NCBI RefSeq assembly: GCF_024128855.1
Contig: NZ_JAMYDV010000010.1
Location: 62,001-126,000 of the forward strand
Direction: 5' to 3'
DNA from: Rhodovulum tesquicola
GTDB lineage: Bacteria; Pseudomonadota; Alphaproteobacteria; Rhodobacterales; Rhodobacteraceae
DNA: 64,000 bases
Shown: one piece after another, positions 10,465 through 29,365 of the stretch
How positions within the stretch are numbered: the first letter of the stretch is position 1
Layout: every line of letters begins with the position of its first letter
The notes under the pieces: model-generated
What the model saw: only the letters and a program-made list of their open reading frames with translations
What the model was told of the DNA's origin: nothing
Database searches by the model: none
Position numbers and translations under genes: made by a program

Positions 10465-12183
10465 TCAGCCCTCCGGCACGGGTTGCAGAAAGCCGAAATC
10501 GCAGCCCTCGTCGGCCTGGAGGACATGCTCGGCGTAAAGCCGGTCATAGCCCCGCCGCGCCTCGGGGGGCACGATGTCGGGCGTCCAGTCCGCGCGGCGG
10601 CGGTCAAGCTCGGCCGCGTCCACCAGCAGTTCGATCCGCTTCCCGGCCACCGACAGCCTGATCCGGTCGCCGGTGCGCACCAGGGCGAGCGGCCCGCCGA
10701 TCGCCGCCTCGGGCGCGACATGCAGCACGATCGTGCCGAAGGCGGTGCCCGACATCCGCGCGTCCGAGATGCGGATCATGTCCTTGACGCCCTTCGAGGA
10801 CAGCTTCTTCGGGATCGGCAGATAGCCCGCCTCGGGCATGCCCGACGCGCTCTTGGGCCCGGCGTTCTGCAAGACCATGATGTCGTCGGGGCCGATGTCG
10901 AGATCGGGGTCGTCCACCCGCGCGGCGAGATCGCCAAGCGAGGAAAAGACCACCGCCCTGCCCTCGTGTTCGAACAGGGTCTTGTCGGCGGCCGAGCGTT
11001 TCAGGATCGCGCCGCGCGGGGCGAGGTTGCCGAACAGCGCCACAAGCCCGCCCTGGGGTTCCAGCGGCGCGTCGGCCGAGGCGATCACGTTGCGGTCGAC
11101 GAAACCGGGATCGTTTTCCAGCCGGTCGCCCAGCGTTTCGCCGGTGACGGTCAGCGTGTCGAGATGCAGCAAGGGTTTCAGTTCCCGCAGCACGGCGCCG
11201 ACGCCGCCCGCGAAGAAGAAATCCTCCATGTAATGGTTGCCGACGGGTTTCAGGTTCACCAGCACCGGGGTTTCGTCGGAAAGCTCGTTGAGCCGGGACA
11301 GCGGAATGTCGATGCCCAGCCGCCCCGCGACCGCCGTCAGGTGGATGATCGCGTTGGTGGACCCGCCCAGCGCCAGCAACACGCGGAGCGCGTTTTCCAC
11401 CGACCTTTCGGTGATGACCTGGCTCGGCCGGATCGGGGCGTCGATCATCCGCGCGGCGGCCAGACCAGAAGCCTCGGCCGCGCGCAGGCGGTCGGCGTGG
11501 ACGGCGGGAATGGCCGCGGTGCCCGGCAGCGCCATGCCCAGCGTCTCGGCGATGCAGGCCATGGTCGAGGCCGTGCCCATCACCGCGCAGGTGCCCGCGG
11601 TCGTGGCCAGCCGCCCCTCAATCTCGTTGATTTCCTCAGTGGAAATCTCGCCCGCGCGGTATTTCCCCCAGAACCGCCGGCAATCGGTGCAGGCGCCCAG
11701 CCGTTCGGTGCCGTAGCGCGAGGTCATCATCGGCCCCGCCACCAGCTGCACCGCCGGCAGGTCGGCCGAGGCCGCGCCCATCAGTTGCGCGGGCACGGTC
11801 TTGTCGCAGCCGCCCACCATAACGACCGCATCCATCGGCTGGGCGCGGATCATCTCTTCGGTGTCCATCGCCATCAGGTTGCGGAATTTCAGCGAGGTGG
11901 GGTTCAGGAACACCTCGCCCAGCGAGATCGTCGGAAACTCGATGGGCAGCCCGCCGCCCAGCAGGACGCCCCGTTTGACCGCCTCGATCAGTTCGGGGAA
12001 ATGCCGGTGGCAGTTGTTGAAGCCCGACGCGCTGTTGGCGATCCCCACGATGGGTTTCTTCAGCACCTCGCGGGAATAGCCCATCGAGGCCGCGAAGGAA
12101 TTGCGCAGGTAGACCGAGAAATCCCGGTCGCCGTAATTCGTCAGCCCGCGGGCAAGGCCCCGGCCCGTGTCGTCTTCACTCAT
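10465..12183 (-). CDS. IlvD/Edd-family dehydratase, sugar-acid (L-arabinonate) dehydratase-like
   Basis: A 572-residue Fe-S dehydratase. Three cysteines expected to hold the [2Fe-2S] cluster are present in SGFNNCHRHF, GGCDKTVPAQ and AGTCAVMGTAS. The catalytic serine motif SDARMSG occurs near residue 475. The run GACTDCRRFWGKYRAGEI and a length of about 570-580 are characteristic of the pentonate/L-arabinonate dehydratase branch rather than IlvD proper. Such enzymes convert an aldonate into a 2-keto-3-deoxy acid. It is the last gene of the minus-strand catabolic cluster, nine bases after the aldehyde dehydrogenase stop, with AAGGGG before the ATG. The actual substrate is unknown. Confidence 0.85.
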   Translation of the reverse strand: MSEDDTGRGLARGLTNYGDRDFSVYLRNSFAASMGYSREVLKKPIVGIANSASGFNNCHRHFPELIEAVKRGVLLGGGLPIEFPTISLGEVFLNPTSLKFRNLMAMDTEEMIRAQPMDAVVMVGGCDKTVPAQLMGAASADLPAVQLVAGPMMTSRYGTERLGACTDCRRFWGKYRAGEISTEEINEIEGRLATTAGTCAVMGTASTMACIAETLGMALPGTAAIPAVHADRLRAAEASGLAAARMIDAPIRPSQVITERSVENALRVLLALGGSTNAIIHLTAVAGRLGIDIPLSRLNELSDETPVLVNLKPVGNHYMEDFFFAGGVGAVLRELKPLLHLDTLTVTGETLGDRLENDPGFVDRNVIASADAPLEPQGGLVALFGNLAPRGAILKRSAADKTLFEHEGRAVVFSSLGDLAARVDDPDLDIGPDDIMVLQNAGPKSASGMPEAGYLPIPKKLSSKGVKDMIRISDARMSGTAFGTIVLHVAPEAAIGGPLALVRTGDRIRLSVAGKRIELLVDAAELDRRRADWTPDIVPPEARRGYDRLYAEHVLQADEGCDFGFLQPVPEG

Positions 12184-12192
12184 GTGAACCCC

Positions 12193-13635
12193 TTACCGCG
12201 CGAGTTTCATCTTGAGGTATTTCGGCTCCAGATAGTCGTGGAGCCCCAGCGAGCCGCCCTCGCGCCCCATCCCGCTTTCCTTCATGCCGCCGAAGGGCGC
12301 CTCGGCGGTGGCGAGCAGCATCTCGTTCACGCCGATCATGCCGCATTCGAGGTCTTCGTAGGCCCGCGTGGCCGTGGTCAGATCGTTGGAAAAGACGTAA
12401 CCGGCCAACCCGAAGGGCAGCGCGTTGGCGCGTTCCATCACCTCGTCATAGTCGCGGAAACTGGTGATGGGGGCGATGGGGCCGAAGGGTTCCTCGTGCA
12501 TCACGCGGGCGTCGTCGGGGACGTGGCCCAGCACCGTGGGGGCGAAGAAGAAGCCGCGGTTGATGCCCTCGGGGCGGCGGCCGCCGGCAAGGATGTCCGC
12601 GCCCCGGTCCACCGCGTCGGCCACGAGGTCCTGGATCGTGGCCAGGCCGCGGGCATTCGCCATCGGCCCCATCTGCACGCCCTCGTCCAGCCCGCGGCCG
12701 AGTTTCAGGCCGTTCGCCACTTCCGCGAAGCGGGCCGAAAAGCGGGCGTAGTGGCTCTCGTGGACGTAGAACCGCGTGGGCGAGATGCAGACCTGCCCGC
12801 AATTGCGGAACTTGGTGGCAGCACAGGTCTCGGCCACCTTCTCGGGGTCCACGTCCTCGAAGATCAGGACAGGTCCGTGACCGCCCAGTTCCATCGAGAC
12901 GCGTTTGACGCCGTCGGCCGCCAGCCGCAGGATCTCCTTGCCCACCGGGACAGAGCCCGTGACCGAGACCTTGCGCACGATGGGGGACGCGATCAGGCGT
13001 TCGGCGATCATGCCGGAATTGCCGGTCAGGAAGTTGACCGCGCCCGGCGGCACGCCGGCGTCGTGGCACGCCTTGACCAGCGCGGCGCAGGAGGCCGGGG
13101 CCTCGCCCGCGGGCTTGATGATGATCGCGCAGCCCGCGCCCAGCGCCGCGGCGATCTTGCGCGCGGGCAGCAGCGCGGGGAAGTTCCAGGCGCTGAAGGC
13201 GGCGACCACGCCCACGGGCTGATGGATCACGGCCATGCGGGCATCGGGCGTGCGCGCCTCGATGATCTGGCCGTAGATGCGCTTGGTCTCCTCGGCATAC
13301 CATTCGAACTGGTCGGCGGCGGCGCCTGTCTCGCCCCGCGCCTCGGCCAGCGGCTTGCCGGTCTCCAGCGACATCAGCGTGGCGATCTCGTCCACGCGCG
13401 CGCGGATCAGGTCCGCCGCGCGGCGCAGGATCGCGCCCCGCTCCCACGTCCCGGTCTGCCGCCACTGGGCGAAGCCCGCCTGGGCGGCGGCAAGGGCCGC
13501 GTCGATATCGGCCTCGGTCGCCACCGCGATGGTGCCAAGCTGTTCCTCGGTCGCGGGGTCGTGGACGCCGCGGGTCGCGCCATCGCTCGCCGCGCGCCAG
13601 TCGCCGCCGATGAACAGGTCCAGATCGTGATACAT
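12193..13635 (-). CDS. NAD(P)-dependent aldehyde dehydrogenase (succinate/2-oxoglutarate-semialdehyde dehydrogenase-like)
   Basis: A 480-residue ALDH-superfamily enzyme. Visible are the oxyanion-hole region SAWNFPALLPARKIAAAL, the coenzyme loop TGSVPVGKEI, the catalytic base in SMELGGHGP and the nucleophile in NCGQVCISPTRF, so all catalytic residues are present. The closest well-known groups are succinate-semialdehyde and 2-oxoglutarate-semialdehyde dehydrogenases. Next to a sugar-acid-type dehydratase this recalls the last step of oxidative pentose (Weimberg-type) routes, an inference only. The start MYHDLDLF was chosen because an upstream in-frame stretch overlaps the preceding gene and lacks homology. 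Confidence 0.88.
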   Translation of the reverse strand: MYHDLDLFIGGDWRAASDGATRGVHDPATEEQLGTIAVATEADIDAALAAAQAGFAQWRQTGTWERGAILRRAADLIRARVDEIATLMSLETGKPLAEARGETGAAADQFEWYAEETKRIYGQIIEARTPDARMAVIHQPVGVVAAFSAWNFPALLPARKIAAALGAGCAIIIKPAGEAPASCAALVKACHDAGVPPGAVNFLTGNSGMIAERLIASPIVRKVSVTGSVPVGKEILRLAADGVKRVSMELGGHGPVLIFEDVDPEKVAETCAATKFRNCGQVCISPTRFYVHESHYARFSARFAEVANGLKLGRGLDEGVQMGPMANARGLATIQDLVADAVDRGADILAGGRRPEGINRGFFFAPTVLGHVPDDARVMHEEPFGPIAPITSFRDYDEVMERANALPFGLAGYVFSNDLTTATRAYEDLECGMIGVNEMLLATAEAPFGGMKESGMGREGGSLGLHDYLEPKYLKMKLAR

Positions 13636-13642
13636 GTGTCCC

Positions 13643-15541
13643 TCAGATATTCTGTTGCAGGTAGCGCGACTGGACGTCGTCGACCCAGTTGCCGACATTC
13701 CAGCTGCCATAGGCGCCCATCTCGGATATCGGATCGCGCCCGTTGTAGACCGGGATATGGATCAGCGAGAGGCCGTCATGTCTGTGCGCCTCGGCCAGGG
13801 CGGCCTCAAGTTCCGCGATGGAATGCCCGCCGTAAAGCGCCTTTACCCCCTCGACGGCCGCGGCCATCAGGACGTAATCCACCTCCACGCTGTCGTTCGT
13901 GGCGAACTCCACCCCGTATTGCGCGTATTGCAGGCCGGTGATCGCGGCCATCCGCCGGTTGTCGAAGAGCGCGATCATGCCCTTCACGCGATGTTCCACC
14001 GCGTCGATCAGCACCTGCGGGTTCATCATGAACGACCCGTCGCCGGTAAACGCGATGGCGTATTTCGGATCGCGCACCCCCGCCGCGCCCAGCAGCGCCG
14101 AGACCGCGAAGCCCATGTAGGAGGCGCCGGTCTCGGTGAAGGTCTGGCCGGGCGCGTCGTCCTCGACGATCTGGAAGCCGTTGGCCTGCACGTCGCCCGC
14201 GTCGAAAAGTTTGATGGCTCCCTGCGCCCTGGCGAAACGGGCGACCGCGCCGATGGCGGCGGGCTGGGTCAGGCAGTCGCGCCCGAAGGCCGCATCGTGC
14301 ATCGGAGGCGCGGACAGGCGGCTGGCCTTGAAGGCGGCCCATTCGGCCTTTTTCGCGGCGCAGGCGGCAAGCCAGTCGGGGCGGTCGGCCCGTTCGGTCG
14401 CGGCGATCAGGCGGTCGGCCACCGCCCCCACATCGCCGGGCAGGCAGACCGTGTTCGCGTAATGCGAAACGTCGTCCAGATCGCCGTTGATGTTGAGGAC
14501 AGCGCGCGCCTTGGGATAGCCCACGCCCGAGCAGTCGGCCTGGCAGACGCCCCGCGAGCCCGCGAAGATCACCAGATCGGCCTCCTCCATCGCGAAATTG
14601 CCGCTGATCGACCCCTTGGAGCCGCCCACATGCATGTTCTGCGGATGCGCGTCGGGCAGAACGCCGGTGGAACCGGGGGACAGCACAACCGCCGCGCCCA
14701 GATGCTCGGCCAGCCGCCGGATCGCTGCGGGCGCGCCGCGCGTGCCGCCGCCTGCCTTGATGACCGGACGCTCGGCCCGGGCCAGCAGGTCGCGGGCGCG
14801 TTCGAACACGCCGCTGCCGGCCGCGGGGGCCATCCGGGGCACGTCCAGACGGCCGGGCAGCGTGGCGAGGTTGATTTCGGCCGCCTGCGGCTGGGTGTTG
14901 ATCGGCAGCAGGATGTAGAACGGCCCCGCCTTGTAGGGATGATGCACGCAGGCGGTGCCCCGGCGCAGGCAGTCGCGCAGCGCCTCGGGCGTGTGCAGGG
15001 TGTAGGACTGACCCATCAGCGCGGTGATCCGCCCGAACATGCCCTGTTCGGGCTTGGGGACCTGCTGCATGTTGTAGCCTTCGCCCCGTGTCGTCTCGTC
15101 GCCGTAGATGTGGTAGACGCCGACCCCGTTCGAGGCGGCGGCCAGCGAACCCGCCATCGCCTGCAAGGCGCCGGGCCCGATCGAGGTTACAACGGCGGGT
15201 GTTTCGCCATGGACCCAGGCGCGCGCGGTTGCGGCATGCGCCATCTCGACCTCGTTGCGACAATGGACGACCGTGACCTGCCCTTCCTCGGCATAGACGC
15301 GCAGCACGTTGCCCAGATCGGTCGAGCCGTGGCCGAAGATCGCGAAGAAGGTGCGCACCCCCTGCCGCAAGAGCCCCAGCACCAGCCCTTCGGAGAGCGT
15401 CAGCGTGGCGCGGGCGGGCAGACGGCCGGCGGCCAGCGCCTCGGTGAGCCCGCCGGTTTCGGCCAGCGCGCGGGCACGCTCGCGCATCTGGGCCTCCAGC
15501 GGGGTATCGGGCCGATCATTCGGATGGGGTGACTGAAGCAC
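13643..15541 (-). CDS. Thiamine-diphosphate-dependent enzyme, IolD-like (acetolactate-synthase superfamily)
   Basis: A 632-residue ThDP enzyme with the three-domain layout of the acetolactate synthase superfamily. The N-terminal PYR domain has TFFAIFGHGSTDLGNVL and the activating glutamate in VHCRNEVEMAHAATA. The C-terminal PP domain has the ThDP-binding GDGSFMMNPQVLIDAV ending in LFDNRR. The FGHG motif, about 630 residues in length, and the YHIYGDETTRGEGYN region are closest to IolD, which hydrolyses the diketone ring of trihydroxycyclohexane-1,2-dione in inositol breakdown. No other inositol gene is nearby, so a different cyclic or oxo acid is likely. It starts at GTG after GGAGGAG, 26 bases inside tctA. 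Confidence 0.8.
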   Translation of the reverse strand: MLQSPHPNDRPDTPLEAQMRERARALAETGGLTEALAAGRLPARATLTLSEGLVLGLLRQGVRTFFAIFGHGSTDLGNVLRVYAEEGQVTVVHCRNEVEMAHAATARAWVHGETPAVVTSIGPGALQAMAGSLAAASNGVGVYHIYGDETTRGEGYNMQQVPKPEQGMFGRITALMGQSYTLHTPEALRDCLRRGTACVHHPYKAGPFYILLPINTQPQAAEINLATLPGRLDVPRMAPAAGSGVFERARDLLARAERPVIKAGGGTRGAPAAIRRLAEHLGAAVVLSPGSTGVLPDAHPQNMHVGGSKGSISGNFAMEEADLVIFAGSRGVCQADCSGVGYPKARAVLNINGDLDDVSHYANTVCLPGDVGAVADRLIAATERADRPDWLAACAAKKAEWAAFKASRLSAPPMHDAAFGRDCLTQPAAIGAVARFARAQGAIKLFDAGDVQANGFQIVEDDAPGQTFTETGASYMGFAVSALLGAAGVRDPKYAIAFTGDGSFMMNPQVLIDAVEHRVKGMIALFDNRRMAAITGLQYAQYGVEFATNDSVEVDYVLMAAAVEGVKALYGGHSIAELEAALAEAHRHDGLSLIHIPVYNGRDPISEMGAYGSWNVGNWVDDVQSRYLQQNI

Positions 15542-17048
15542 GTCTCTTCTCCTCCGTTCTGCGGTCGGACAGCGTGGCGCGGGTAGAGCGCAGCAGTTGC
15601 GCGCCGACGACCAGCGCGGCTAGGCCCAGGAACACGGCGCCCGGGACGGACGCGACGAATACGGACGGGTCGCCCTCGGACAGGATCATCGCGGTGCGGA
15701 AATCGCGCTCGATGGCCGGGCCAAGGACAAGCCCCAGGATGATCGGCGTCAACGGAATGCCGACGCGCATCAGCCCGTAGGCCAGCGCCCCCAGCACCGC
15801 CACCGACACCACGTCGAAGACCGAGTTGCGGATCGCGAACGCGCCGTAGGCGCACATCACGATGACCGCCACCGCCAGCAGATGCGCAGGCACGCGCAGC
15901 ACCTGCACGAAGAAGCGGATGCCCAGAAGCTGGATCGCGACGACGGCGACATAGGCCACGATGATGGCGATGTAGATCTGGTAGATCTCGCCCGGGTTCT
16001 GGATGAACAGCATCGGCCCCGGGATCAGCCCGTGGATCAGCAGCCCCGACAGCAGGATCGCGGTCGCCGGATCGCCCGGGATGCCCAACGAAAGCAGCGG
16101 GATCATCGCGCCCCCCGTCACCGCATTGTTGGCCGTCTCGGGGGCCACCACGCCCGCCATCTCGCCCTTGCCGAAGCGTTCGGGGCGTTTCGAGGATTTC
16201 CGCGCATGGGCATAGGCCAGGAACGCCGCAATCGGCCCACCGGTGCCGGGGATCGCCCCGATCCCGGTGCCCAGCAGCGCACAGCGCAGCATCAGCCAGA
16301 AGTCGCGCAGGATATCGCGGATCGTGGGCAGTTCGGCGCGGACATCGGCCACCTCCTGCGGCTTTTGCTCGCCCGCGTAATGCTGCACGAAGGCGTCGAT
16401 CACGTGCGGCACGGCGAAGAGCGCGATCATCGCCACCAGCAGGCTCACCCCCTGCTGCAGCACGACAGTACCGAAGGTCAGCCGCTGCGCGCCCTCGATC
16501 TCGTCTATGCCGATGGTCATCACCATCAGCCCCAGAATGCCCGCGATCAGCCCCTTGACCAGCGATTTCTGCGCCAGCCCGCAGATCGTGGACAAGCCGA
16601 AGACCAGCAGCCCGAAGGTCTCGGCCGGGCCAAACCTCAGCGCGAGCCTCGCCACCATGTCGACCGAAACCACCATGATGATCAGCGAGACGATGCCCCC
16701 GAAGGCCGAGGCCACGACCGCCGTGCCCAGCGCCAGCGACGCCTTGCCACGGCGGGTCAGTTGATAGCCGTCCAGAACCGTCGCCGCCGCCGAGGGCGTG
16801 CCCGGTATGCCCAGCAGGATCGCCGAGACCGAGCCCCCCGTCATCCCGCCGATATAGGTGCCCAGCAGCAGCCCGATCGCGGGCGCGGTCTCCATCGAGA
16901 AGGACATCGGCACCACCAGCGCCATCGCGACGGTGAAGGTCAGCCCCGGAATCGCGCCGAAGACCACGCCCAGCAGGCAACCCGCCATCACCGCGACAAG
17001 AGCGGCGGGCGCAAGAGCGACCTGGGCTGCGGCAAGCAAGAGGTCCAT
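15516..17048 (-). CDS. tctA: Tripartite tricarboxylate transporter large permease TctA
   Basis: A 510-residue inner-membrane protein with roughly eleven or twelve hydrophobic segments. It is recognised from the TctA signatures GVVFGAIPGLTFTVAMAL, GGMTGGSVSAILLGIPGTP, and GVVAPETANNAVTGGAMIP with LGIPGDPATAILL. The TctA family moves the solute with a proton or sodium gradient after capture by the periplasmic TctC. The ATG at 17048 has GGGAAGGA upstream; the in-frame extension before it is arginine-rich and overlaps the gap to tctB. It is the third transporter gene of a tctCBA set embedded in the catabolic cluster. Confidence 0.93.
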   Translation of the reverse strand: MDLLLAAAQVALAPAALVAVMAGCLLGVVFGAIPGLTFTVAMALVVPMSFSMETAPAIGLLLGTYIGGMTGGSVSAILLGIPGTPSAAATVLDGYQLTRRGKASLALGTAVVASAFGGIVSLIIMVVSVDMVARLALRFGPAETFGLLVFGLSTICGLAQKSLVKGLIAGILGLMVMTIGIDEIEGAQRLTFGTVVLQQGVSLLVAMIALFAVPHVIDAFVQHYAGEQKPQEVADVRAELPTIRDILRDFWLMLRCALLGTGIGAIPGTGGPIAAFLAYAHARKSSKRPERFGKGEMAGVVAPETANNAVTGGAMIPLLSLGIPGDPATAILLSGLLIHGLIPGPMLFIQNPGEIYQIYIAIIVAYVAVVAIQLLGIRFFVQVLRVPAHLLAVAVIVMCAYGAFAIRNSVFDVVSVAVLGALAYGLMRVGIPLTPIILGLVLGPAIERDFRTAMILSEGDPSVFVASVPGAVFLGLAALVVGAQLLRSTRATLSDRRTEEKRRASVTPSE

Positions 17049-17103
17049 CCGGGTCCTTCCCTTTGCGCCGGACCCCGCAAGGCGCGGCCCGGCCCGTTTG
17101 CGT

Positions 17104-17619
17104 TCAGAACAGCGAGATCCAGGTTCCGCGCGGCATGTAGGCGCCCAGCAGCTTGCCAAAGGCGAGCCAGGCGCCCAGCGCGATGCCGAAGGCCATGCCG
17201 CCCACCACCAGCGGGCGGCGCTCGCCGAGGGCGACGACCAACGTTGCGGAAACCGTCAGCACGGTCGCAGGCAGAAACCCGATCTTCTGCATCAGGACGC
17301 CATAGGCAGCGATGATTCCGCAGACCGTCGCGACAAGTGCCAGACGCCGCCCCGCCGAGACCGGCGGCGCGGCCGCCGAGCCCTCCCCCTCGCCGGGCGG
17401 GTCGAGACCATGGCCCCCGCGCAGACCCTTGAGCAGCAGCAGCGCCGACAGCACCGCCAGCCCCACGCCCAGCCAGAACGGGAATGCCCGCGGCCCGACC
17501 CCATGGCCGACCGGCACCGTCAGCCACACCGCTGCCGTCCAGGCCAGTGCAAGGACCAGCAGAACGCTGCCCGCGATCAGATCCTTGCGGCGCTCGCCCG
17601 CGTCGGGGACGGGTGGCAT
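17104..17619 (-). CDS. tctB: Tripartite tricarboxylate transporter small permease TctB
   Basis: A 171-residue membrane protein with four predicted helices, the size and pattern of TctB. The first helix begins DLIAGSVLLVLALAWTAAVW. It is followed by the family-type GVGPRAFPFWLGVGLAVLS, and the last pair surrounds KIGFLPATVLTVSATLVVAL. A hydrophilic loop with GEGEGSAAAPP separates the halves. It starts four bases after the tctC stop and lies 55 bases before tctA. The role is structural within the TctAB permease. Confidence 0.88.
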   Translation of the reverse strand: MPPVPDAGERRKDLIAGSVLLVLALAWTAAVWLTVPVGHGVGPRAFPFWLGVGLAVLSALLLLKGLRGGHGLDPPGEGEGSAAAPPVSAGRRLALVATVCGIIAAYGVLMQKIGFLPATVLTVSATLVVALGERRPLVVGGMAFGIALGAWLAFGKLLGAYMPRGTWISLF

Positions 17620-17623
17620 GGCG

Positions 17624-18586: not shown

Positions 18587-18608
18587 GTGGTCTTCCTCCC
18601 TTCGTTGG

Positions 18609-18624
18609 GCCGCCTTTGGGCGGC
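18609..18624 (-). promoter_or_regulatory. Intergenic GC hairpin upstream of tctC
   Basis: Six-base-pair stem GCCGCC/GGCGGC with a four-base loop, located between the isomerase stop and the tctC Shine-Dalgarno on the transcribed strand. There is no T tract, so it is more likely an mRNA-processing or stability element raising receptor level relative to upstream genes than a terminator. This is inference. Confidence 0.35.
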
Positions 18625-18694
18625 ATGCGGCAGTCCTCCACTGCCAGTCCCTATCTGACGCGCCGCGCCTCCCCTGCGCGACCCGTCCCTTTGG

Positions 18695-19627
18695 TCAGTC
18701 GGGCCGCTGCGACAGCGCCCAGGCGTCGCGGATCACCCGCTTGGCGTTGGCCATGATCACCTCTGACACCTCGCCGGCCAGAACGGGCCGCACCTCGGCG
18801 CTGACCACCGGGCGCACGGGCTTGTCGAAGAAGCCGTTCCTGCGCAGTTCCCGGAAGAAGGTCACCACTTCGGGCGTGTCGGTCTCGCCGCCCGGGATGC
18901 CGAAGCGGGGCTGGATATCGCCATAGGCGGGGTGCGACTTGTCGCGGAAGGCGCAGTTGCCCAGATGCACCGCGTCGAGGAACTCGGCCATCTGCGGGAT
19001 GCTTTCCTCGGGCGTCTCGTCGAGCAGCGGGAAATGGCTGAGGTCCGTCAGCAGGCCGAAATGCGGGTAGTCGGGGCGGATCGCGCGGGCGATGTCCACC
19101 GCGTCGCCCACCGGGCCGATCAGGTTCTTCTTGTCGATGCCGCGGTCGAAGATCTTGAGCGTGAAGGCCAGCCCGTCCTTTTCCTCGGCCGCGTAGTCGA
19201 GGATCTGGTGCAGCGAGTCGATCAGCAGCTTCTTGGCCTCCTCGCGCTTCGCGTCGCCGGGGTCTTTCCCTGCGATCAGGCGGACCACCTCGGCGCCGAG
19301 CTGGCGCGCCTCGTCCACCGCGCTCTTGATCTCCTGCACCGCCTTGGCACGTTCGCCCGTGTCGAAATGGTTGAGGTTCAGCTTGTTGGTCAGCGATTTC
19401 GGCTGGGTGGCGTAGGCGACCGACAGATGGCTCTGGTCCAGCAGGTGACGGGCGGTGTTCCTGACCCGGTAATCCTTCATCCAGCCCACCTCGACGGCGG
19501 TCCAGAATTCGTCGGCGCAAATCTTCTCCAGCGTCTCGACGATGGGGCCTGCGCCCGTCTCGATGCCCGGGAAGGCCTTGAAATGGACGATGCCGACCCG
19601 CATCGCGCTGTACATCGAGGTTTCCAT
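18695..19627 (-). CDS. Sugar-phosphate isomerase/epimerase-like TIM-barrel protein (AP endonuclease family 2 fold)
   Basis: A 310-residue xylose-isomerase-like TIM barrel. Candidate metal and substrate residues sit at strand ends as expected: GLLTDLSHFPLL (Asp, His), DAVHLGNCAFRDKSHP (His) and PVVSAEVRPVL (Glu). Relatives include IolE/IolI-type dehydratases and isomerases. The function is not assignable, but the presence of an IolD-like enzyme in the same cluster makes an isomerase or dehydratase acting on a polyhydroxylated intermediate reasonable (inference). The start METSMYS is preceded by AGGGAGA. Confidence 0.78.
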   Translation of the reverse strand: METSMYSAMRVGIVHFKAFPGIETGAGPIVETLEKICADEFWTAVEVGWMKDYRVRNTARHLLDQSHLSVAYATQPKSLTNKLNLNHFDTGERAKAVQEIKSAVDEARQLGAEVVRLIAGKDPGDAKREEAKKLLIDSLHQILDYAAEEKDGLAFTLKIFDRGIDKKNLIGPVGDAVDIARAIRPDYPHFGLLTDLSHFPLLDETPEESIPQMAEFLDAVHLGNCAFRDKSHPAYGDIQPRFGIPGGETDTPEVVTFFRELRRNGFFDKPVRPVVSAEVRPVLAGEVSEVIMANAKRVIRDAWALSQRPD

Positions 19628-19669
19628 GCTTTCTCCCTGTCCCTCGCGCCGCCCTCGCGGCACCCTTTG

Positions 19670-20689
19670 CTATTCCGCGGCCTCGCGGGCGCCCGCCGCG
19701 CGGGCCTGTTTCTCGGCGATGGCCGCCAGCACCTTTTCCGGCGTCGCGGGCAGCGAGCGGATGCGCACGCCCACCGCGTCGTGGATCGCGTTGATGATCG
19801 CGGGCGCGGTCGGCACCAGTGCCGGCTCGCCGATCCCCTTGGCGCCGAGCGGGCTGAGGGGGTCGGGATCCTCGACCAGGATCGAGGTGATCTCGGGCAC
19901 GTCCAGCGCGGTCGGCAGGATGTATTTCGCGAAACCGTGCGTCACCGGGTGGCCGTTCGCGGTCTGGTAATCCTCCATCAGCGCCTGGCCCAGGCCCTGC
20001 ACCACGCCGCCCTCGATCTGGCCCTCGACGCCGCGGGGGTTGATGACCCGGCCCACGTCATGCGCGGCCCAGAGGCCCAGCACCTGCACCTCGCCGGTGA
20101 CGGTGTCGACCTCGACCTCGGCCACCTGGGTGCCGAAGACATAGGCCTGCCAGGGCGCGCCCGAGCCGTCCTCGGGGTCGAGCCCCGTGCCGTGCGACGT
20201 GAAGTGCCCCGCGCCCACCGGCACCACGCCGCGCCGCTTGCAGAGGTCCACCGCCTCGGCCATGGTCATGGCGAGGTTGGTGCCCTCGGCGCGCAACTCG
20301 CCGTCGAAGGCGACGAGGCTGCCCGCGTCCACCTCCCAATGCGCCGCGATCTCGGTGAAAAGCCGCGCCTTCGCCTCGCGGCACGCGAGCGCCACGGAAT
20401 TGCCGATCATGTAGGTCTGGCGCGTGGCGCCCGCATGGGCCGCCTCGGGCGAGCGCGCGGTATCGTTGTCGCCGATGGTCACGTCCTCGGGGCGGATGCC
20501 CAGTTCCTCGGCGGCGATCTGGGCCAGCACCGTCAGGATGCCCTCGCCGATCTCGGTCACGCCGGTCACGACCTTGGCGGTGCCGCCGTCATCCAGTTCC
20601 GCCCAGGCGCCGGCGCGGTCCACCGTGGCGGTCCGCGCGATGCCGTACCAGCTTGCCGCGACGCCGCGGCCGCGCATCTTGCGTTGCAT
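19670..20689 (-). CDS. C-terminal half of a molybdenum hydroxylase large subunit (xanthine dehydrogenase family)
   Basis: A 339-residue protein equal to the second half of a CoxL/XdhB-type molybdopterin-binding subunit. It opens with RGRGVAASWYGIART and TEIGEGILTVLAQIAAEELG. It ends with the active-site segment GAKGIGEPALVPTAPAII, whose glutamate is the catalytic base in xanthine-dehydrogenase-family enzymes. The first half, including the GGGFGGKED cofactor loop, is encoded by the preceding gene, so the two polypeptides must assemble for activity. The ATG shares one base with the preceding TGA (TGATG), in a different frame, suggesting translational coupling. Either gene fission or a frameshift could explain this. 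Confidence 0.85.
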   Translation of the reverse strand: MQRKMRGRGVAASWYGIARTATVDRAGAWAELDDGGTAKVVTGVTEIGEGILTVLAQIAAEELGIRPEDVTIGDNDTARSPEAAHAGATRQTYMIGNSVALACREAKARLFTEIAAHWEVDAGSLVAFDGELRAEGTNLAMTMAEAVDLCKRRGVVPVGAGHFTSHGTGLDPEDGSGAPWQAYVFGTQVAEVEVDTVTGEVQVLGLWAAHDVGRVINPRGVEGQIEGGVVQGLGQALMEDYQTANGHPVTHGFAKYILPTALDVPEITSILVEDPDPLSPLGAKGIGEPALVPTAPAIINAIHDAVGVRIRSLPATPEKVLAAIAEKQARAAGAREAAE

Positions 20690-22566
20690 CAGGCCACCCT
20701 TTCCTTGCTGTCCTTCGGCGTCTCGAACCGCGCCCCCAGCGTGCAGGGCGCGCGCGTCCCCGGCCCCCCCAGGTCGCCCCGCGTCGGCCCGCGCATGCCC
20801 ACCGGGCCCGGCTCCCAGCGCGACGCCTGTTCGGCCGCCTCCAGCACCCGGTCGATCGAGGCCGAGGTCAGCCGTTGCTGCGTGTGGGTGAGCGAGCCCG
20901 CCCGCATCATGTTGCGCCGCCTGATCTCGAACGGGTCGAGGCCCAACCGTTCGGCGGCGATGTCCATCATGCTTTCGGTGGCGAATTGCGCCTGCATGCC
21001 GCCGAAGGTGCGGAAGGCGCCCGACGGCGTGTTGTTGGTGTAGACGGCGGTGGTGTCGACCTGCAGGTTCTCGACCTCGTAGGGTCCGCAGGACAGGATC
21101 GCGGCCTTGCGCATCACGCCTTCGGACGACATGCCGTAGGCACCGCCATCGGACAGCATCTCGAAGCGGATCGCGGTGATCCGGCCGTCGTTCTTCAGCC
21201 CCATGCGGTATTTGACACGGGAGGGATGCCGCTTGGCCGAGGCGATGATCGATTCCTCGCGGGTGAAGACCAGCCGCACCGGGCGGTCGGTCTTCATCGC
21301 GGCCAAGGCCAGCATGCCCTGGTAGATCATGTCTTCCTTGCCGCCGAAGCCGCCGCCCACCGGCGACATGATGAAGCGCACCTTGTTGATGGGCTTGGCG
21401 ATGATCTCCGACAGCATGTGGCGGTGATGGGTGATGTTCTGGCTGGGCGAAATCACCGTCACCACGTCATCGGCATCGACATAGGCCAGCCCCGCCTCGG
21501 GTTCGAGATAGGCGTGTTCGACCTGCTGGGTCGAGAACTCGTCCTCGAGGATCAGGTCGGCCTCGGCGAAGCCCTTGTCCACGTCGCCCTTCCGGATCGG
21601 GATGTGCTTGACCACGTTGTCGGGGGCGTAATCGTGGATCACCGGGGCACCGGGTTTCAGCGCGTCCTCGGGGTCGAAGAGGCCCGGCAGTTCACGATAT
21701 TCCACCCTGATCTTCGCCAGCGCCCGGCGCGCGGTCGCCGCGTCCTCGGCGGCGATGGCCGCGACCGCCTCGCCCACGTGGCGCACCTTGCCGCGCGCCA
21801 TCACCGGCTGGTCGTGGACGAAGACGCCGAAGCCGTCCTTGCCCGGCACGTCGTCGGCGGTGATGACGCAGGCCACGCCTTCCATGGCTTCCGCCCCGGA
21901 GGTGTCGATGGAGACGATCTCGGCATGGGGATGGGGCGAGCGCAGGACCGCCATGTGCAGCATGCCCGGCATCACCATGTCGCCCGCGTATTTCAGCCGG
22001 CCCGTCACCTTGGAGGGCGCGTCCAGCCGCCGGACATTGTGGCCGATATAGCTGTCGCCCACGCCTTCGGGCTCCAGCACGGCGGGGCTGGCGCGGCCCG
22101 TCACCACGTCGCGGGCCAAGGCCACGGCCTCGATGATCTTGGAGTACCCCGTGCAGCGGCAGATATTGCCGCCCATGCGTTCCTTGATCTCGTCAAGGCT
22201 CGCCTCGGGCGCCTCGCGCAGGACGGACGTCGCCGCCATCACCATGCCGGGGATGCAATAGCCGCACTGGCTGGCCCCGGTCTTGTGGAACGCCTTCTGG
22301 ATGGCCTCCAGCTCGCCCGGCCTGGCCAGCCCCTCGACGGTCTGGATGTCCGCGCCTTGCGCCTTGGCCACCGGCATCAGGCAGGATTTCACCAGCTTGC
22401 CGTCCACGAAGACGCTGCACGTCCCGCATTCGCCCGCGCCGCAGCCTTCCTTGGTGCCGGTGAGGTTCAGCTCGTCGCGCAGGAAATCCAGCAGGCGCTG
22501 GCCGGGATCGGCACGGCGCGTCACCTTGCGGCCATTCACCCGCATGTCCAGTGTCATCTCAGGCAT
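20689..22566 (-). CDS. Fused [2Fe-2S] subunit and N-terminal half of molybdenum hydroxylase large subunit
   Basis: A 625-residue fusion. Residues 1-160 are a CoxS-type iron-sulfur protein: plant ferredoxin cysteines in GCGAGECGTCSVFVDG plus a further Cys, then the helical domain with QCGYCIPGMVM and ICRCTGYSKI. After a short linker, residues 170-600 are the first half of the molybdopterin subunit, with RRLDAPSKVTGRLKYAGD and the cofactor loop VGGGFGGKEDM. The last 40 residues are glycine/arginine-rich without homology, and the catalytic C-terminal half is a separate gene. Together the two make 964 residues, close to the fused XdhD type (about 956 in E. coli). The start overlaps the FAD subunit by eight bases. 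Confidence 0.87.
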   Translation of the reverse strand: MPEMTLDMRVNGRKVTRRADPGQRLLDFLRDELNLTGTKEGCGAGECGTCSVFVDGKLVKSCLMPVAKAQGADIQTVEGLARPGELEAIQKAFHKTGASQCGYCIPGMVMAATSVLREAPEASLDEIKERMGGNICRCTGYSKIIEAVALARDVVTGRASPAVLEPEGVGDSYIGHNVRRLDAPSKVTGRLKYAGDMVMPGMLHMAVLRSPHPHAEIVSIDTSGAEAMEGVACVITADDVPGKDGFGVFVHDQPVMARGKVRHVGEAVAAIAAEDAATARRALAKIRVEYRELPGLFDPEDALKPGAPVIHDYAPDNVVKHIPIRKGDVDKGFAEADLILEDEFSTQQVEHAYLEPEAGLAYVDADDVVTVISPSQNITHHRHMLSEIIAKPINKVRFIMSPVGGGFGGKEDMIYQGMLALAAMKTDRPVRLVFTREESIIASAKRHPSRVKYRMGLKNDGRITAIRFEMLSDGGAYGMSSEGVMRKAAILSCGPYEVENLQVDTTAVYTNNTPSGAFRTFGGMQAQFATESMMDIAAERLGLDPFEIRRRNMMRAGSLTHTQQRLTSASIDRVLEAAEQASRWEPGPVGMRGPTRGDLGGPGTRAPCTLGARFETPKDSKERVA

Positions 22567-23476
22567 TGAGAGCCTCCTTGAGTCCGGCCGCTTGCGGGGC
22601 TGTGCGCGCCCGCTCTGCGGCCTCTTCCAGCGCGGCGCGGACGAAGCCCGGCACCACGCGGCGGCGATACTCGACGCGGCTGCGCGAGGCGACGCGGGCC
22701 GCCGCGGCCTCGGCCACCTCGGCGATCAGGCGGGCGTCCAACGCCGCGCCCTTCAGCCGGTCCTCGATGTCGCGCAGGCGTTCCGGCACGGGTCCGACAC
22801 CGCCCATCGCAAGGCGCACGTCCTCGAAACGGGTGCCGGTCTCGTCCAGTTTCACCAGCGCGGCCACGCAGGCGACCGAGATCACCAGCGAGCGGCGCAG
22901 GCCCACCTTCTGGAAGGACGCGCCGTAGCCCTCGGTGCAGTCGAGCGTCACCGAGTTCACGATCTCGCCGGGCGCAAGCCGCGTGGCGCCGGGGCCGGTC
23001 ACGAAATCCTCGACCCGCATGGTGCGGCACATGATGTGATCGCCCGCCCAGCGGCGAAGCTCCAGTTCGCCGTTCAGCGCAAGGACGGGGGGCGTGCCAT
23101 CGGCGGCGGGCGAGGCGTTCACCAGATTGCCCGCAAGCGTCGCCTGCTGGCGGATCTGGTCGTCGGCGAACCAGACCGAACAATAGGGCATCACCGGCAG
23201 CCAGCGGGCCAGCCGCGGGTCGTCAAGGAAATCCTGCCAGACGGTGTTGGCGCCCAGCCGCACGCGCGCCCCGTGGCGTTCGTAGCCCCTGAGTTCCGCG
23301 ACCCGGCTGAGGTCGATCCCCAGCGGCAGGTCCACGTCGCCCGCGCGCCCCTCGCGCGCCCAGGGCAGGATGTCGGTCGCGCCCGCCACCAGCCGCGCGC
23401 CCGCAGGGGCCTCGGCCCAGAGCGCCAGCGCCTCGGGCAGCGTCGCAGGCATTTCATAGCGTTCGAATGTCAGCAT
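22559..23476 (-). CDS. FAD-binding subunit of molybdenum hydroxylase (CoxM type)
   Basis: A 305-residue medium subunit of the xanthine dehydrogenase/CO dehydrogenase family. It has the FAD-binding motifs LVAGATDILPWAREG near residue 35 and QATLAGNLVNASPAADG near residue 110. It then has the CO-dehydrogenase flavoprotein C-terminal domain with GASFQKVGLRRSLVISVA. It passes electrons from the [2Fe-2S] clusters to NAD or another acceptor. It is encoded directly upstream of and overlapping the Fe-S/Mo gene, so the heterotrimeric-type enzyme is made from one message. ATG 23476 (MLTFERYEM) is preceded by AGGGA. Confidence 0.9.
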   Translation of the reverse strand: MLTFERYEMPATLPEALALWAEAPAGARLVAGATDILPWAREGRAGDVDLPLGIDLSRVAELRGYERHGARVRLGANTVWQDFLDDPRLARWLPVMPYCSVWFADDQIRQQATLAGNLVNASPAADGTPPVLALNGELELRRWAGDHIMCRTMRVEDFVTGPGATRLAPGEIVNSVTLDCTEGYGASFQKVGLRRSLVISVACVAALVKLDETGTRFEDVRLAMGGVGPVPERLRDIEDRLKGAALDARLIAEVAEAAAARVASRSRVEYRRRVVPGFVRAALEEAAERARTAPQAAGLKEALNA

Positions 23477-23536
23477 GTCCCTGGCCCCTCCCTTGGCCAT
23501 GGACGGGGCCGCCCGTCGCGGGGCGGCCCCGGCGGT

Positions 23537-24700
23537 TTACTCGGCGGCCACGCGCTTGGCCTCGGAATGGCGGTTCTTGACCACCACCTTGATCGCGTCC
23601 TCGACCCGGTCCCTAGCGTAGCGGATCGCCTCCTTCAGGTCGTCCATCTCGAAGGTGTGGGTGTGGATCAGCGTGGCGTCGAACCGCTTCTGCCGCATGA
23701 AGGCCTCGGCCCGGTGAGTTGCGGATTTCCCTTCGCCGCGAATGCCGTAGACATAGATGTTGTTGCGCACCAGATGCGCCACATCGACCTGCGGCGGCTC
23801 GCCCGGAAAGGCCGCGAGGCAGACCTTGCCGCCCCGGTTGACCATCTGGCAGGCCTCGTTGATCGCGTTCGCCGCGGCGGAACATTCGAGGACGTAGTCC
23901 ACGCCCGCCCCGCCGTTCAGCCGCTTGACCGCCTCGACCGGATCCTCGTTGCGGACGTTCACGACGTGGTCGGCGCCGAGCTTCTTGCCCATCTCCAGCC
24001 GGTTGTCGCGGGTCCCCGTGAGGATCACGGGCTGCGCGCCCAGCGCCTTGGCGACCGCGACGCCCAGCAACCCGATCGGCCCGGGCCCGGTAACCACCAC
24101 GCTTTCGCCCGCGACCAGCCCGCCCAGTTCGGTCAGGCCATACATCGCGGTTCCGGCGGTGACGACCAGCGTCGCCTCCTCATCCGACATGCTGTCGTCC
24201 ACATGGATCAGCGTGTTGATGTTGTTGACCTGGTATTCGCAGAACCCGCCATCGGTGGTGAATCCGTTGGCGCGGTGGCCCTTGTCCACGTCGCCGTAGT
24301 TCTTGCCGTAATTGTGGCAGGACGTGTACATCCCCTGCCGGCAGCGCTTGCACTGGCCGCAGCCTGCATGGATTTCCACCGTCACCCGCTGGCCGATCTC
24401 GTATTCGTCCACCCCGGGGCCCAGCGCCACGACGGTGCCCATGTATTCATGCCCCGGCGTGAAGTTCTTGTTGAAGGGCGCCCCGCCCTCGATCTGCGCC
24501 GGAGGACCGTGATAGATGATCTCCAGGTCGGTCGCGCAGATCGCCACGGCGTCGATCCGGACCAGCACCTCGGCCTTCTTCGGCACCGGCACCGGCTTTT
24601 CGGCAAGCGTCAGCTCGCCCGGATCGCCCAGCACCCAGGCCTTCATCTTCTCGGGGATCGGATAGCGGCTATCCGTCTTTACACCCGCTGGCATCGCCAT
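23537..24700 (-). CDS. Zinc-dependent medium-chain alcohol dehydrogenase
   Basis: A 387-residue MDR-family dehydrogenase. Catalytic zinc ligands are seen in AICATDLEII (Cys) and FTPGHEYMGTV (His-Glu). The structural zinc site is complete with four cysteines in HAGCGQCKRCRQGMYTSC. The nucleotide-binding fold has VVVTGPGPIGLLGVAVAKAL. The substrate is unknown; relatives oxidise polyols, sugars or cyclic alcohols. It is the first enzyme gene of the cluster, with GGGAGGA before the chosen ATG, and lies 55 bases downstream of the IclR gene on the same strand. A role before ring cleavage is possible (inference). Confidence 0.88.
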   Translation of the reverse strand: MAMPAGVKTDSRYPIPEKMKAWVLGDPGELTLAEKPVPVPKKAEVLVRIDAVAICATDLEIIYHGPPAQIEGGAPFNKNFTPGHEYMGTVVALGPGVDEYEIGQRVTVEIHAGCGQCKRCRQGMYTSCHNYGKNYGDVDKGHRANGFTTDGGFCEYQVNNINTLIHVDDSMSDEEATLVVTAGTAMYGLTELGGLVAGESVVVTGPGPIGLLGVAVAKALGAQPVILTGTRDNRLEMGKKLGADHVVNVRNEDPVEAVKRLNGGAGVDYVLECSAAANAINEACQMVNRGGKVCLAAFPGEPPQVDVAHLVRNNIYVYGIRGEGKSATHRAEAFMRQKRFDATLIHTHTFEMDDLKEAIRYARDRVEDAIKVVVKNRHSEAKRVAAE

Positions 24701-24755
24701 CTGTGATTCCTCCCTTTTGTCCCTGTTTCCCATTCCTCCCCGGACCGCCCCCTCC

Positions 24756-25592
24756 CTAGGGGCGACCCAGGCGCAACCTGTCCGACAGCCTGCGGGCGCA
24801 GGCCACCACTTCCTGCGCGACATGCGCCCGGCAGGCCTCGGTCGCCAGGGCCGCGGGCATCGAGGCAGAGATCGAGCCGATCACCGCGCCCTTCTCGTCC
24901 CTCAGCGCCGCGCCGTAGCACACCACCCCCGCCTTGAGTTCCTCGTTATCCACCGCAAAGCCGTTGCGCCGGACCCAGCGCAGATCCTCGGTCAGATCCG
25001 CCAGACTGGTCAGCGTGTTGTCGGTGAACCGCTCCAGCCCGTTTTCGGAAATGATCTTCAGCGTCTCGCCCTCGGGCAGCCAGGCAAGGATGGCCTTGCC
25101 GGTCGCGGTGGCATGGGCGGCGCGCATCTTCACCACCTCGTCGGCTTCAATGACATGGGTCTCGGCCACATTTGCCCTGAACCGCGTGACCAGCGCGCTG
25201 CCCTGCATCTCGGCCAGTTGCACGCTCAGCCCCAGCCGACCGGACAGTTCGATCAGGTCGGTGCGGGCGAAATCCGACAGGTCGGCCTTGCGCGCGCTCA
25301 TCTCGGTCAGTTCCTGCAAGCGCGAGGACAGCATGTAGCCCCGGCTGCGCCCGGCATTCAGGACATAGCCGCGCTCGACCAGGGTCGCGACCAGATGATG
25401 GCAGGTCGAGACGTTCAGTCCGGCCTGCGCGGCCACCTCGCCCAGCGCCAGCGCGTCGGGCGCGGCAGCCAGGATCTCCAGGATGTCCAGCGCGCGCTCG
25501 ACCGACTGGATGCGTCGCGCCGCCGCCTTCTCCACCGAGGCGAAAGAAGGATCCGCCACGCTGTCCCGATATGTCGCCGCCCTGCTCGCCAT
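24756..25592 (-). CDS. IclR-family transcriptional regulator
   Basis: A 278-residue regulator with an N-terminal winged helix (RIQSVERALDILEILAAA, then LALGEVAAQAGLNVSTCHHL as the HTH). A C-terminal effector-binding GAF-like domain follows, including HATATGKAILAWLPEGE and DNEELKAGVVCYGAALRD, typical IclR blocks. It probably binds the carboxylate substrate or an intermediate and controls the cluster that follows it on the same strand. Two starts are adjacent (GTG 25595, ATG 25592); the ATG is placed five bases after GGGAGG. An AT-rich segment upstream is the likely operator region. Confidence 0.9.
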   Translation of the reverse strand: MASRAATYRDSVADPSFASVEKAAARRIQSVERALDILEILAAAPDALALGEVAAQAGLNVSTCHHLVATLVERGYVLNAGRSRGYMLSSRLQELTEMSARKADLSDFARTDLIELSGRLGLSVQLAEMQGSALVTRFRANVAETHVIEADEVVKMRAAHATATGKAILAWLPEGETLKIISENGLERFTDNTLTSLADLTEDLRWVRRNGFAVDNEELKAGVVCYGAALRDEKGAVIGSISASMPAALATEACRAHVAQEVVACARRLSDRLRLGRP

Positions 25593-25631
25593 CACGTCCT
25601 CCCGGGGGAAATTTCGCCCATGGTTGGATGA

Positions 25632-25683
25632 GCGTCAAGTATTTTTCCAAATATCGAAGTCATTTTCACATTGTAAAATAATA
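25632..25683. promoter_or_regulatory. AT-rich probable operator/promoter region between the IclR and BLUF genes
   Basis: A roughly 50-base island of AT-rich sequence in an otherwise GC-rich divergent gap. It contains an imperfect palindrome, ATTTTCACATTGTAAAAT, and TTTTTCCAAATAT. On the minus strand a TTGACG box with a weak GAAATT 17 bases on could serve the IclR gene. IclR regulators often bind AT-rich imperfect palindromes beside their own gene, so this is the best operator candidate. Assigned by composition and position only. Confidence 0.35.
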
Positions 25684-25697
25684 TGGCGGCGATCTCC

Positions 25698-25725
25698 TTG
25701 ACTTGGCAGCGCGCAGCCTTATACC
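25698..25725 (+). promoter_or_regulatory. Candidate promoter of the BLUF gene
   Basis: TTGACT, a 16-base spacer, then TATACC, the closest match to the sigma-70 -35 consensus in this window. The leader is about 35 bases and contains AAGGGAGG (too far from the start to act as Shine-Dalgarno) and GGAG seven bases before the GTG at 25767. Confidence 0.5.
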
Positions 25726-25766
25726 GCCCCAAGGGAGGTCCGTATCACCCGAGCCGGAGCCGCGCA

Positions 25767-27626: not shown

Positions 27627-27635
27627 CTTTACAAC

Positions 27636-27665
27636 ATTACAAAAAGGTGTGGATGTTAACTTCAA
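27636..27665 (-). promoter_or_regulatory. Candidate promoter of the ScfR gene, very close to its start codon
   Basis: On the minus strand, TTGAAG, an 18-base spacer, then TGTAAT. The -10 box ends nine bases before the ATG, leaving a leader of only a few bases and no Shine-Dalgarno. The surrounding 100 bases are AT-rich and probably include the regulator's own operator and that of tctC. Confidence 0.4.
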
Positions 27666-27804
27666 ACTTATCACAACAACTCTTTTCGGTGTGGAATTTT
27701 CTGCGCCGTCCGCGATTTTCGGAGACATGAAATGGCGTTGCATGGTCCGACCGCGGGAGGGTCGCCTGATGCGAGCGCCGCCGTTTCCAACAGGGAGGAA
27801 GAAA

Positions 27805-28782: not shown

Positions 28783-28861
28783 TCCTTTCGCAGACCTTCG
28801 CTGGCGGGCGGGCCCTCGGGTCCGCCCGTATCTTCGAACGCGCAACCGGATGGGAGGCACC

Positions 28862-29353: not shown

Positions 29354-29365
29354 GGAGGGGCGGCC

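What the first reader, a model, noticed from the sequence alone, without database searches (positions are those of the whole stretch)
10465..25592. Long catabolic cluster combining TctCBA, a molybdenum hydroxylase, an IolD-like ThDP enzyme and a sugar-acid-type dehydratase
Seen: eleven same-strand genes with short gaps or overlaps downstream of an IclR regulator gene, with all expected catalytic motifs. Known: TctCBA imports small carboxylates; xanthine-dehydrogenase-family enzymes hydroxylate (hetero)cyclic carbons; IolD hydrolyses a cyclic 1,2-diketone; IlvD/Edd members dehydrate aldonates; ALDHs end such routes. Inference: a cyclic or hydroxylated acid is imported, hydroxylated, oxidised by the Zn-ADH, opened or cleaved by the IolD-like enzyme, then dehydrated and oxidised to a central metabolite. 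This combination matches no pathway I can name.
Basis: partly seen in the sequence, partly recalled or inferred. Interest (0 to 1): 0.75.

Follow-up and report, generated by a model that had tools for sequence, protein, structure and literature searches.

The report
Blue-light-linked catabolic operon, unknown substrate
A twelve-gene bacterial operon that seems to import and oxidise an unidentified small acid is real and recurs in distantly related bacteria, and in many of them a blue-light sensor gene sits beside it, which suggests an undescribed and possibly light-tuned way of using a natural compound.

Summary
In detail: eleven minus-strand genes follow an IclR gene, closely spaced and with catalytic residues kept. 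It is a conserved operon, not a chance mixture. In 198 family genomes, orthologs of the Mo subunit and the ThDP enzyme co-occur in 8, and occur alone in 1 and 2. In 91 distinct ThDP loci the system is modular: 41 carry the Mo gene, with FAD in 41 of 41 and Zn-ADH in 40 of 41; 38 carry a Gfo/Idh/MocA dehydrogenase instead. The ThDP family, IolD-like but below the IolD cut-off, is the hinge; ALDH plus IlvD/Edd often follow it, and six mostly anaerobic loci carry a DhuI-like isomerase. I infer C-C cleavage to an aldehyde sugar acid, then oxidation and dehydration. The substrate is unknown. Not noticed before: a BLUF photoreceptor gene lies beside the operon in the window and 16 other Mo-type genomes or records. 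Sixteen cluster-linked BLUFs fall in one 19-row group, all from genomes with the cluster. A conserved palindrome lies upstream of iclR. Light control is inferred, not shown.

The parts
10465..12183 (-). IlvD/Edd family sugar-acid dehydratase
   Evidence: PF00920, PF24877; NCBIfam PRK06131 821 vs cut-off 539
12193..13635 (-). NAD(P)-dependent aldehyde dehydrogenase, succinate-semialdehyde type
   Evidence: PF00171; start, ORF opens at 13710
13643..15541 (-). IolD-like ThDP enzyme, hinge of the system (GTG start, or ATG at 15487)
   Evidence: TPP_enzyme N, M, C; alignments and tree
15516..17048 (-). TctA permease subunit
   Evidence: PF01970; start
17104..17619 (-). TctB permease subunit
   Evidence: PF07331
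17624..18586 (-). TctC periplasmic binding protein
   Evidence: PF03401
18695..19627 (-). xylose-isomerase-like TIM barrel protein, weak IolO resemblance
   Evidence: PF01261; IolO 44.2 vs cut-off 300; in 8 of 41 distinct Mo-type loci
19670..20689 (-). Mo hydroxylase, C-terminal half (MoCoBD_2)
   Evidence: PF20256; best PDB match 3hrd_B, nicotinate dehydrogenase medium subunit
20689..22566 (-). Mo hydroxylase, 2Fe-2S domains fused to N-terminal half (MoCoBD_1)
   Evidence: PF00111, PF01799, PF01315, PF02738; best PDB match 3hrd_A
22559..23500 (-). Mo hydroxylase FAD subunit
   Evidence: PF00941, PF03450
23537..24733 (-). zinc-dependent medium-chain dehydrogenase
   Evidence: PF08240, PF00107; below Tdh and IolM cut-offs
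24756..25595 (-). IclR-family regulator, first gene of the operon
   Evidence: PF09339, PF01614
25664..25678 (.). palindrome TTTCAN5TGAAA with one mismatch, candidate IclR operator
   Evidence: only site with at most 1 mismatch in the window; conserved upstream of iclR
25683..26210 (+). short BLUF photoreceptor, divergent from iclR (real start may be a GTG at about 25767)
   Evidence: PF04940 89 bits; linkage and tree

Best explanation
An IclR-controlled operon of twelve genes imports a small polyhydroxylated carboxylate and oxidises it. Shown by comparison: it is one conserved unit; Zn-ADH plus the XDH-type Mo hydroxylase behave as one block that other loci replace with a Gfo/Idh/MocA dehydrogenase; ALDH plus IlvD/Edd behave as a second block that is missing or replaced elsewhere. 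Inferred: the front block turns the substrate into a 1,2-dicarbonyl, most likely cyclic; the IolD-like ThDP enzyme cleaves the C-C bond between the carbonyls and leaves an aldehyde sugar acid; ALDH oxidises the aldehyde to a dicarboxylic sugar acid; the IlvD/Edd dehydratase makes a 2-keto-3-deoxy acid that housekeeping enzymes finish. Also inferred: the IclR protein binds the palindrome upstream of its gene, and the BLUF protein adjusts expression or activity to blue light.
For: Block conservation and replacement over 91 distinct loci. FGHG is shared with three IolDs, while the two other ThDP enzymes of this genome have other letters; the His is kept in 93 of 95 rows, 2 gaps. The IolDs are the nearest of the six outgroup rows in a quick, midpoint-rooted tree with very long stems. 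Two different downstream modules would consume an aldehyde acid: ALDH, and in six loci an RpiB-type protein; the one tested (L101) matches gbs1892 best, named DhuI, the DHU ketol-isomerase, in PMC6837340 (passages); in L098 it stands beside an SDR whose best NCBIfam hit is KduD, below cut-off. In L055 and L122 the order Gfo/Idh/MocA, TIM barrel, ThDP recalls IolG-IolE-IolD (in L122 an ABC ATPase gene lies between). Mo-site Glu and Lys invariant, 44 of 44. BLUF and operator.
Against: No enzyme has been assayed. Identity to IolD is 26-30% and the IolD cut-off is missed by far. In most Gfo/Idh/MocA loci one dehydrogenase alone precedes ThDP, which by itself would not make a diketone. L013 has a gene like L-threonate dehydrogenase or tartronate semialdehyde reductase, which points to a linear acid. 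Structure search ranks acetolactate synthases and pyruvate oxidases first and does not separate chemistries. G014 has iclR, Zn-ADH, FAD, Mo and TctCBA without ThDP, and five family genomes have an IlvD ortholog of 71-88% identity without ThDP. BLUF: no match anywhere in 15 of 33 searched Mo-type genomes or records nor in 2 of the 8 family genomes with the cluster, so light sensing is not essential.
Confidence: 0.45

Rival explanations
1. The ThDP enzyme is a decarboxylase of a linear 2-keto sugar acid. The dehydrogenase (with or without the Mo enzyme) makes the 2-keto acid, ThDP removes CO2 to give an aldose one carbon shorter, ALDH and IlvD process it.
For: Decarboxylases dominate the family and the structure matches. 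L013 pairs ThDP with a threonate-dehydrogenase-like protein, a TIM barrel and TRAP transporter. A lactonase-like gene in some Rhizobiales loci and an IlvD homolog of 60-61% identity beside genes that I take from their first letters (recall, no search) for LarB/C/E in L115 and L116 fit linear aldonates.
Against: FGHG and other letters group it with IolD rather than with the acetolactate synthase of the same genome.
Confidence: 0.3
2. Two pathways share one operon: Zn-ADH, Mo enzyme and TctCBA handle an acid (perhaps an N-heterocyclic one), while ThDP, ALDH and IlvD handle a sugar or cyclitol.
For: Each block occurs without the other; the Mo enzyme is nearest nicotinate dehydrogenase in the PDB.
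Against: 8 of 9 family genomes with the Mo ortholog also have ThDP, and Lachnospiraceae loci keep ThDP, Zn-ADH, FAD and Mo together without ALDH or IlvD, which argues that these act on one route.
Confidence: 0.15
3. The BLUF gene is a passenger with no role in this pathway.
For: Absent from many Mo-type genomes; its position varies, divergent from iclR or downstream of the operon.
Against: Six of the seven BLUF genes in the eight family genomes with the cluster lie beside it (binomial about 3e-12 under random placement); the six best matches to the window BLUF are exactly these; the linked BLUFs group together, with three members on other contigs that still come from genomes with the cluster.
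Confidence: 0.2

Closest known systems
IolD, 3D-(3,5/4)-trihydroxycyclohexane-1,2-dione hydrolase, and the iol operon
   Same: ThDP enzyme with FGHG and a C-terminal W[ND]V stretch; neighbouring dehydrogenase, sometimes a TIM barrel
   Different: 26-30% identity, equivalog cut-off missed; in the window ALDH and IlvD stand where iolB, iolC and iolJ would
Nicotinate dehydrogenase (PDB 3hrd) and other XDH-family Mo hydroxylases
   Same: FAD, 2Fe-2S and a Mo subunit split at the same domain border
   Different: 2Fe-2S part fused to the large half; Glu where 3hrd_A has Leu, and Lys where bovine xanthine oxidase has Arg880 (bovine numbering recalled)
DhuI/DhuD unsaturated-uronate route
   Same: RpiB-type isomerase in six loci and a KduD-like SDR in L098 beside ThDP
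   Different: Not in the window operon, where ALDH and IlvD follow ThDP
IlvD/Edd sugar-acid dehydratases such as L-arabinonate dehydratase (PDB 9evv)
   Same: PRK06131 subfamily, cluster cysteines
   Different: L-arabinonate dehydratase cut-off missed
Short BLUF photoreceptors
   Same: PF04940; Tyr, Asn, Gln and Trp of the flavin site kept in 19 of 19
   Different: A group of its own tied to one catabolic operon; I recall no such case

Membership tests
IolD (TIGR04377) | score over the equivalog cut-off | tested here: not met
   184.1 vs 715 bits
IolD (TIGR04377) | ThDP motifs and FGHG motif | tested here: met
IolD (TIGR04377) | hydrolysis of a cyclic 1,2-diketone | not testable with these tools
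   needs an enzyme assay
XDH-family molybdenum hydroxylase | 2Fe-2S, FAD and MoCo domains, catalytic Glu | tested here: met
   Glu288 in 44 of 44
nicotinate dehydrogenase | Mo subunit split in two genes at the MoCoBD border | tested here: met
nicotinate dehydrogenase | Leu in the GGK-x motif as in 3hrd_A | tested here: not met
   Glu in 44 of 44
IlvD/Edd dehydratase, PRK06131 subfamily | score over cut-off, cluster cysteines | tested here: met
   821.3 vs 539 bits; cysteines
L-arabinonate dehydratase (NF009559) | score over cut-off | tested here: not met
   686.6 vs 882
succinate-semialdehyde dehydrogenase (TIGR01780) | score over cut-off | tested here: not met
   505.9 vs 646.35
scyllo-inosose 3-dehydrogenase IolM (NF041097) | score over cut-off | tested here: not met
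   191.2 vs 450
TctCBA tripartite tricarboxylate transporter | three subunits over Pfam cut-offs | tested here: met
BLUF photoreceptor | PF04940 over cut-off, flavin-site Tyr, Asn, Gln | tested here: met
BLUF photoreceptor | photocycle and effect on the operon | not testable with these tools
   needs spectroscopy and reporter assays

The most novel reading that the evidence does not exclude
A carbon-source pathway with its own dedicated blue-light photoreceptor: a BLUF subfamily that has co-evolved with an IclR-controlled operon, so that uptake and oxidation of the substrate, by a new ThDP-centred C-C cleavage route joined to an XDH-type hydroxylase, are tuned by light. The substrate would be one whose supply or toxicity follows daylight, for example a photoproduct or an algal metabolite.
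Probability: 0.3. Interest if true: 0.8.

Novelty: new variant of a known kind. Interest (0 to 1): 0.6.

Why it matters
The operon recurs in marine, soil, freshwater and gut lineages, from a SAR11 isolate (HIMB114, L059) to Lachnospiraceae, so its substrate is probably a common natural compound whose breakdown has no name yet. The ThDP family is a new candidate C-C cleaving enzyme. The BLUF linkage offers a testable case of a non-photosynthetic catabolic operon wired to light, in bacteria that live in sunlit water.

Tried and rejected
Frameshift as cause of the split Mo subunit: rejected, 38 of 41 distinct Mo-type loci share it. Classical inositol operon: rejected by score; of three TPP_enzyme_N proteins in the held genome the other two lack FGHG. 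Structure of the ThDP enzyme: good model, but the matches do not separate decarboxylase, synthase and hydrolase; cyclohexane-1,2-dione hydrolase is not among the 50 rows shown in either list, which excludes nothing. Rfam: nothing in the window. Promoter and terminator scan: uninformative. Papers: of ten answered searches none listed a paper that I recognised as describing this operon; I read listings, and passages of PMC6837340, PMC12247030 and PMC4770636 only. The library holds open-licence PMC papers only. Reaching more anaerobe genomes through a family search failed. Rows dropped before counts: L037, L042 and L093 as near-copies; L021, L034 and L037 from the BLUF tree, where the BLUF of G149 and those of the L053, L063 and L064 genomes are also missing because I did not fetch them. 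L038 was not held and not searched for BLUF.

Full report
What is there. On the minus strand of 10465-25595 lie iclR and eleven further genes, in transcription order Zn-ADH, FAD subunit, 2Fe-2S/MoCoBD_1, MoCoBD_2, TIM barrel, TctC, TctB, TctA, ThDP enzyme, ALDH, IlvD/Edd. Spacing is tight; the only gap above 100 bp is TIM barrel to tctC. The scan for promoters and terminators is uninformative but finds no terminator-like site on the minus strand.

Is it a unit? With 14 loci fetched from plasmids and family genomes I examined the surroundings of 94 loci, 91 of them distinct, window not counted. Many loci are cut short by contig ends or by the 10 kb flank, so absences are upper bounds. Of the 91, 41 carry the Mo gene MoN; FAD accompanies it in 41 of 41, Zn-ADH in 40 of 41, a separate MoC gene in 38 of 41 (three are fused), TctC in 36, TctA in 29, the TIM barrel in 8, ALDH plus IlvD in 28. 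Another 38 carry a Gfo/Idh/MocA gene without MoN; 12 have neither; 6 have both. A ugp-type sugar ABC permease occurs in 21 of 44 loci with Gfo/Idh/MocA and in none of the 41 with MoN. In the reverse direction, 198 family genomes contain MoN orthologs in 9 and ThDP orthologs in 10, both in 8. The exception G014 has iclR, Zn-ADH, FAD, fused Mo and TctCBA but no ThDP. The ThDP family itself is patchy: 4 of 398 genomes of the phylum, own genome included, at E up to 1e-120.

The ThDP enzyme. NCBIfam places it nearest IolD but far under the cut-off (184 vs 715 bits). In an alignment with three IolDs, one haloarchaeal enzyme and the two other ThDP enzymes of this genome, the FGHG motif is shared with the IolDs (the haloarchaeal enzyme has PGHG) and not with those two; the His is present in 93 of 95 rows, the other two being gaps. 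In a quick tree the family is one group and the IolDs are its nearest outgroup, on very long stems and with midpoint rooting, so this is weak support. On that tree the front-end type is clustered (9 changes for Gfo/Idh/MocA, shuffled mean 30) but both types occur in the deep anaerobe branch, so front ends have been exchanged. The AlphaFold2 model is confident (pLDDT 88) and matches acetolactate synthases, pyruvate oxidases and others about equally.

The Mo enzyme. The best solved relatives are the large and medium subunits of nicotinate dehydrogenase 3hrd, split at the same border. Read against xanthine dehydrogenase in the alignment, the Glu of the GGKE motif is kept and the residue at the recalled Arg880 position is Lys; both are invariant in 44 of 44 sequences, gut Clostridia included. 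This is neither the 3hrd pattern (Leu) nor that of aldehyde oxidoreductase (Phe in 1sij), and leaves the substrate open.

Other front and back ends. L013 (Salipiger) has IclR, ThDP, a threonate-dehydrogenase-like protein, an HbpS-like protein, a TIM barrel, TRAP transporter, ALDH and IlvD. L122 and its relative L060 (Paraburkholderia) have an Rbs-type ABC transporter, Gfo/Idh/MocA, TIM barrel, ThDP, ALDH and IlvD. Six loci (L095, L098, L099, L101, L102, L103: Actinomycetota, Bacillota, Myxococcota and Spirochaetota by their titles) carry an RpiB-type gene; the L101 protein matches gbs1892 best, which PMC6837340 names DhuI, a uronate ketol-isomerase (passages). L095, L099 and L102 add transketolase halves, L099 a dihydroxyacetone kinase, L103 a beta-keto acid cleavage enzyme and L102 a methylmalonate-semialdehyde dehydrogenase over cut-off. 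A uronate isomerase and an ALDH as alternative next steps both point to an aldehyde acid as ThDP product. This is inference.

BLUF. At 25683-26210, divergent from iclR, lies a BLUF gene (89 bits). BLUF ORFs occur in the held flanks of 14 of 43 Mo-type loci and of none of the other 51 (near-copies included). In 198 family genomes 76 have BLUF; of the eight with Mo and ThDP, six have one, and all six lie beside the cluster (the own genome has a second elsewhere); G089 and G162 have none. With the window BLUF as query the six best matches are those six. Of 54 named genomes or records searched, 18 of 33 Mo-type have BLUF, 11 of them beside the cluster (L012, L026-L030, L032, L033, L036, L080, L091; for L026-L028 contig lengths agree); 6 of 21 without Mo genes at the locus have BLUF, none within the held flanks. 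In a tree of 48 BLUFs 15 of 16 linked ones and L148 form a clade (95/92); with L091, L152 and L154 they form a 19-row group of weaker support (84/77). L148, L152 and L154 lie on other contigs but come from the genomes of L031, L040 and L046, all with this type of cluster. Flavin-site residues are kept in 19 of 19.

Operator. Upstream of iclR lies TTTCAN5TGAAA, one mismatch in the window, where it is the only such site. Of 19 Mo-type loci, window included, with at least 120 bp held upstream, 7 have it exactly and 14 with at most one mismatch; mononucleotide shuffles give 0.1 loci on average. Three more (L144-L146, the genomes of L026-L028) also have it. Of 29 stretches with unlinked BLUFs 1 has a site, and the three off-contig BLUF stretches have none, so the palindrome goes with iclR and not with BLUF as such.

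Reading. I commit to a modular oxidative route in which the ThDP enzyme cleaves a 1,2-dicarbonyl into an aldehyde sugar acid (0.45), with 2-keto acid decarboxylation as main rival (0.30). The carriers identified in Mo-type loci (TctCBA, DASS, sodium:dicarboxylate symporter) suggest a carboxylate; several Mo-type loci show no carrier. The substrate remains unknown.

Noticed in passing
window 27619-30883 (+): A second TctC-TctB-TctA set, divergent from a regulator with an N-terminal helix-turn-helix (26223-28025, minus; family not searched), followed by an AMP-binding acyl-CoA ligase-like gene at 30933.
   Followed up: partly
L012, L029, L030 (downstream of IlvD): Genes for NAD(P) transhydrogenase subunits follow the operon, then BLUF in L012 and L030; the same gene clusters occur in L020 and L080.
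   Followed up: no
L059 (alpha proteobacterium HIMB114): A SAR11-lineage isolate with a genome of about 1.2 Mb carries the Mo-type operon: IclR, Zn-ADH, FAD, MoN, MoC, TctC, TctA, ThDP, ALDH, IlvD.
   Followed up: no
L038, L039, L043, L047, L048: Rhizobiales variant with a metallo-beta-lactamase-fold lactonase-like gene in the operon, often an alpha/beta hydrolase, and a nearby divergent set with putative cyclase (PF04199), cupin, SDR and 3-hydroxyacyl-CoA-dehydrogenase-like genes.
   Followed up: partly
L115, L116: An IlvD homolog of 60-61% identity stands beside Gfo/Idh/MocA, GMC-like and ALDH genes and genes that look like the lar nickel-cofactor set (recalled from first letters, not searched).
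   Followed up: no
L107 (Halalkalicoccus plasmid): A haloarchaeal IolD-like ThDP protein of 28% identity is next to Gfo/Idh/MocA, sugar ABC transporter and, further off, an iolM gene.
   Followed up: no
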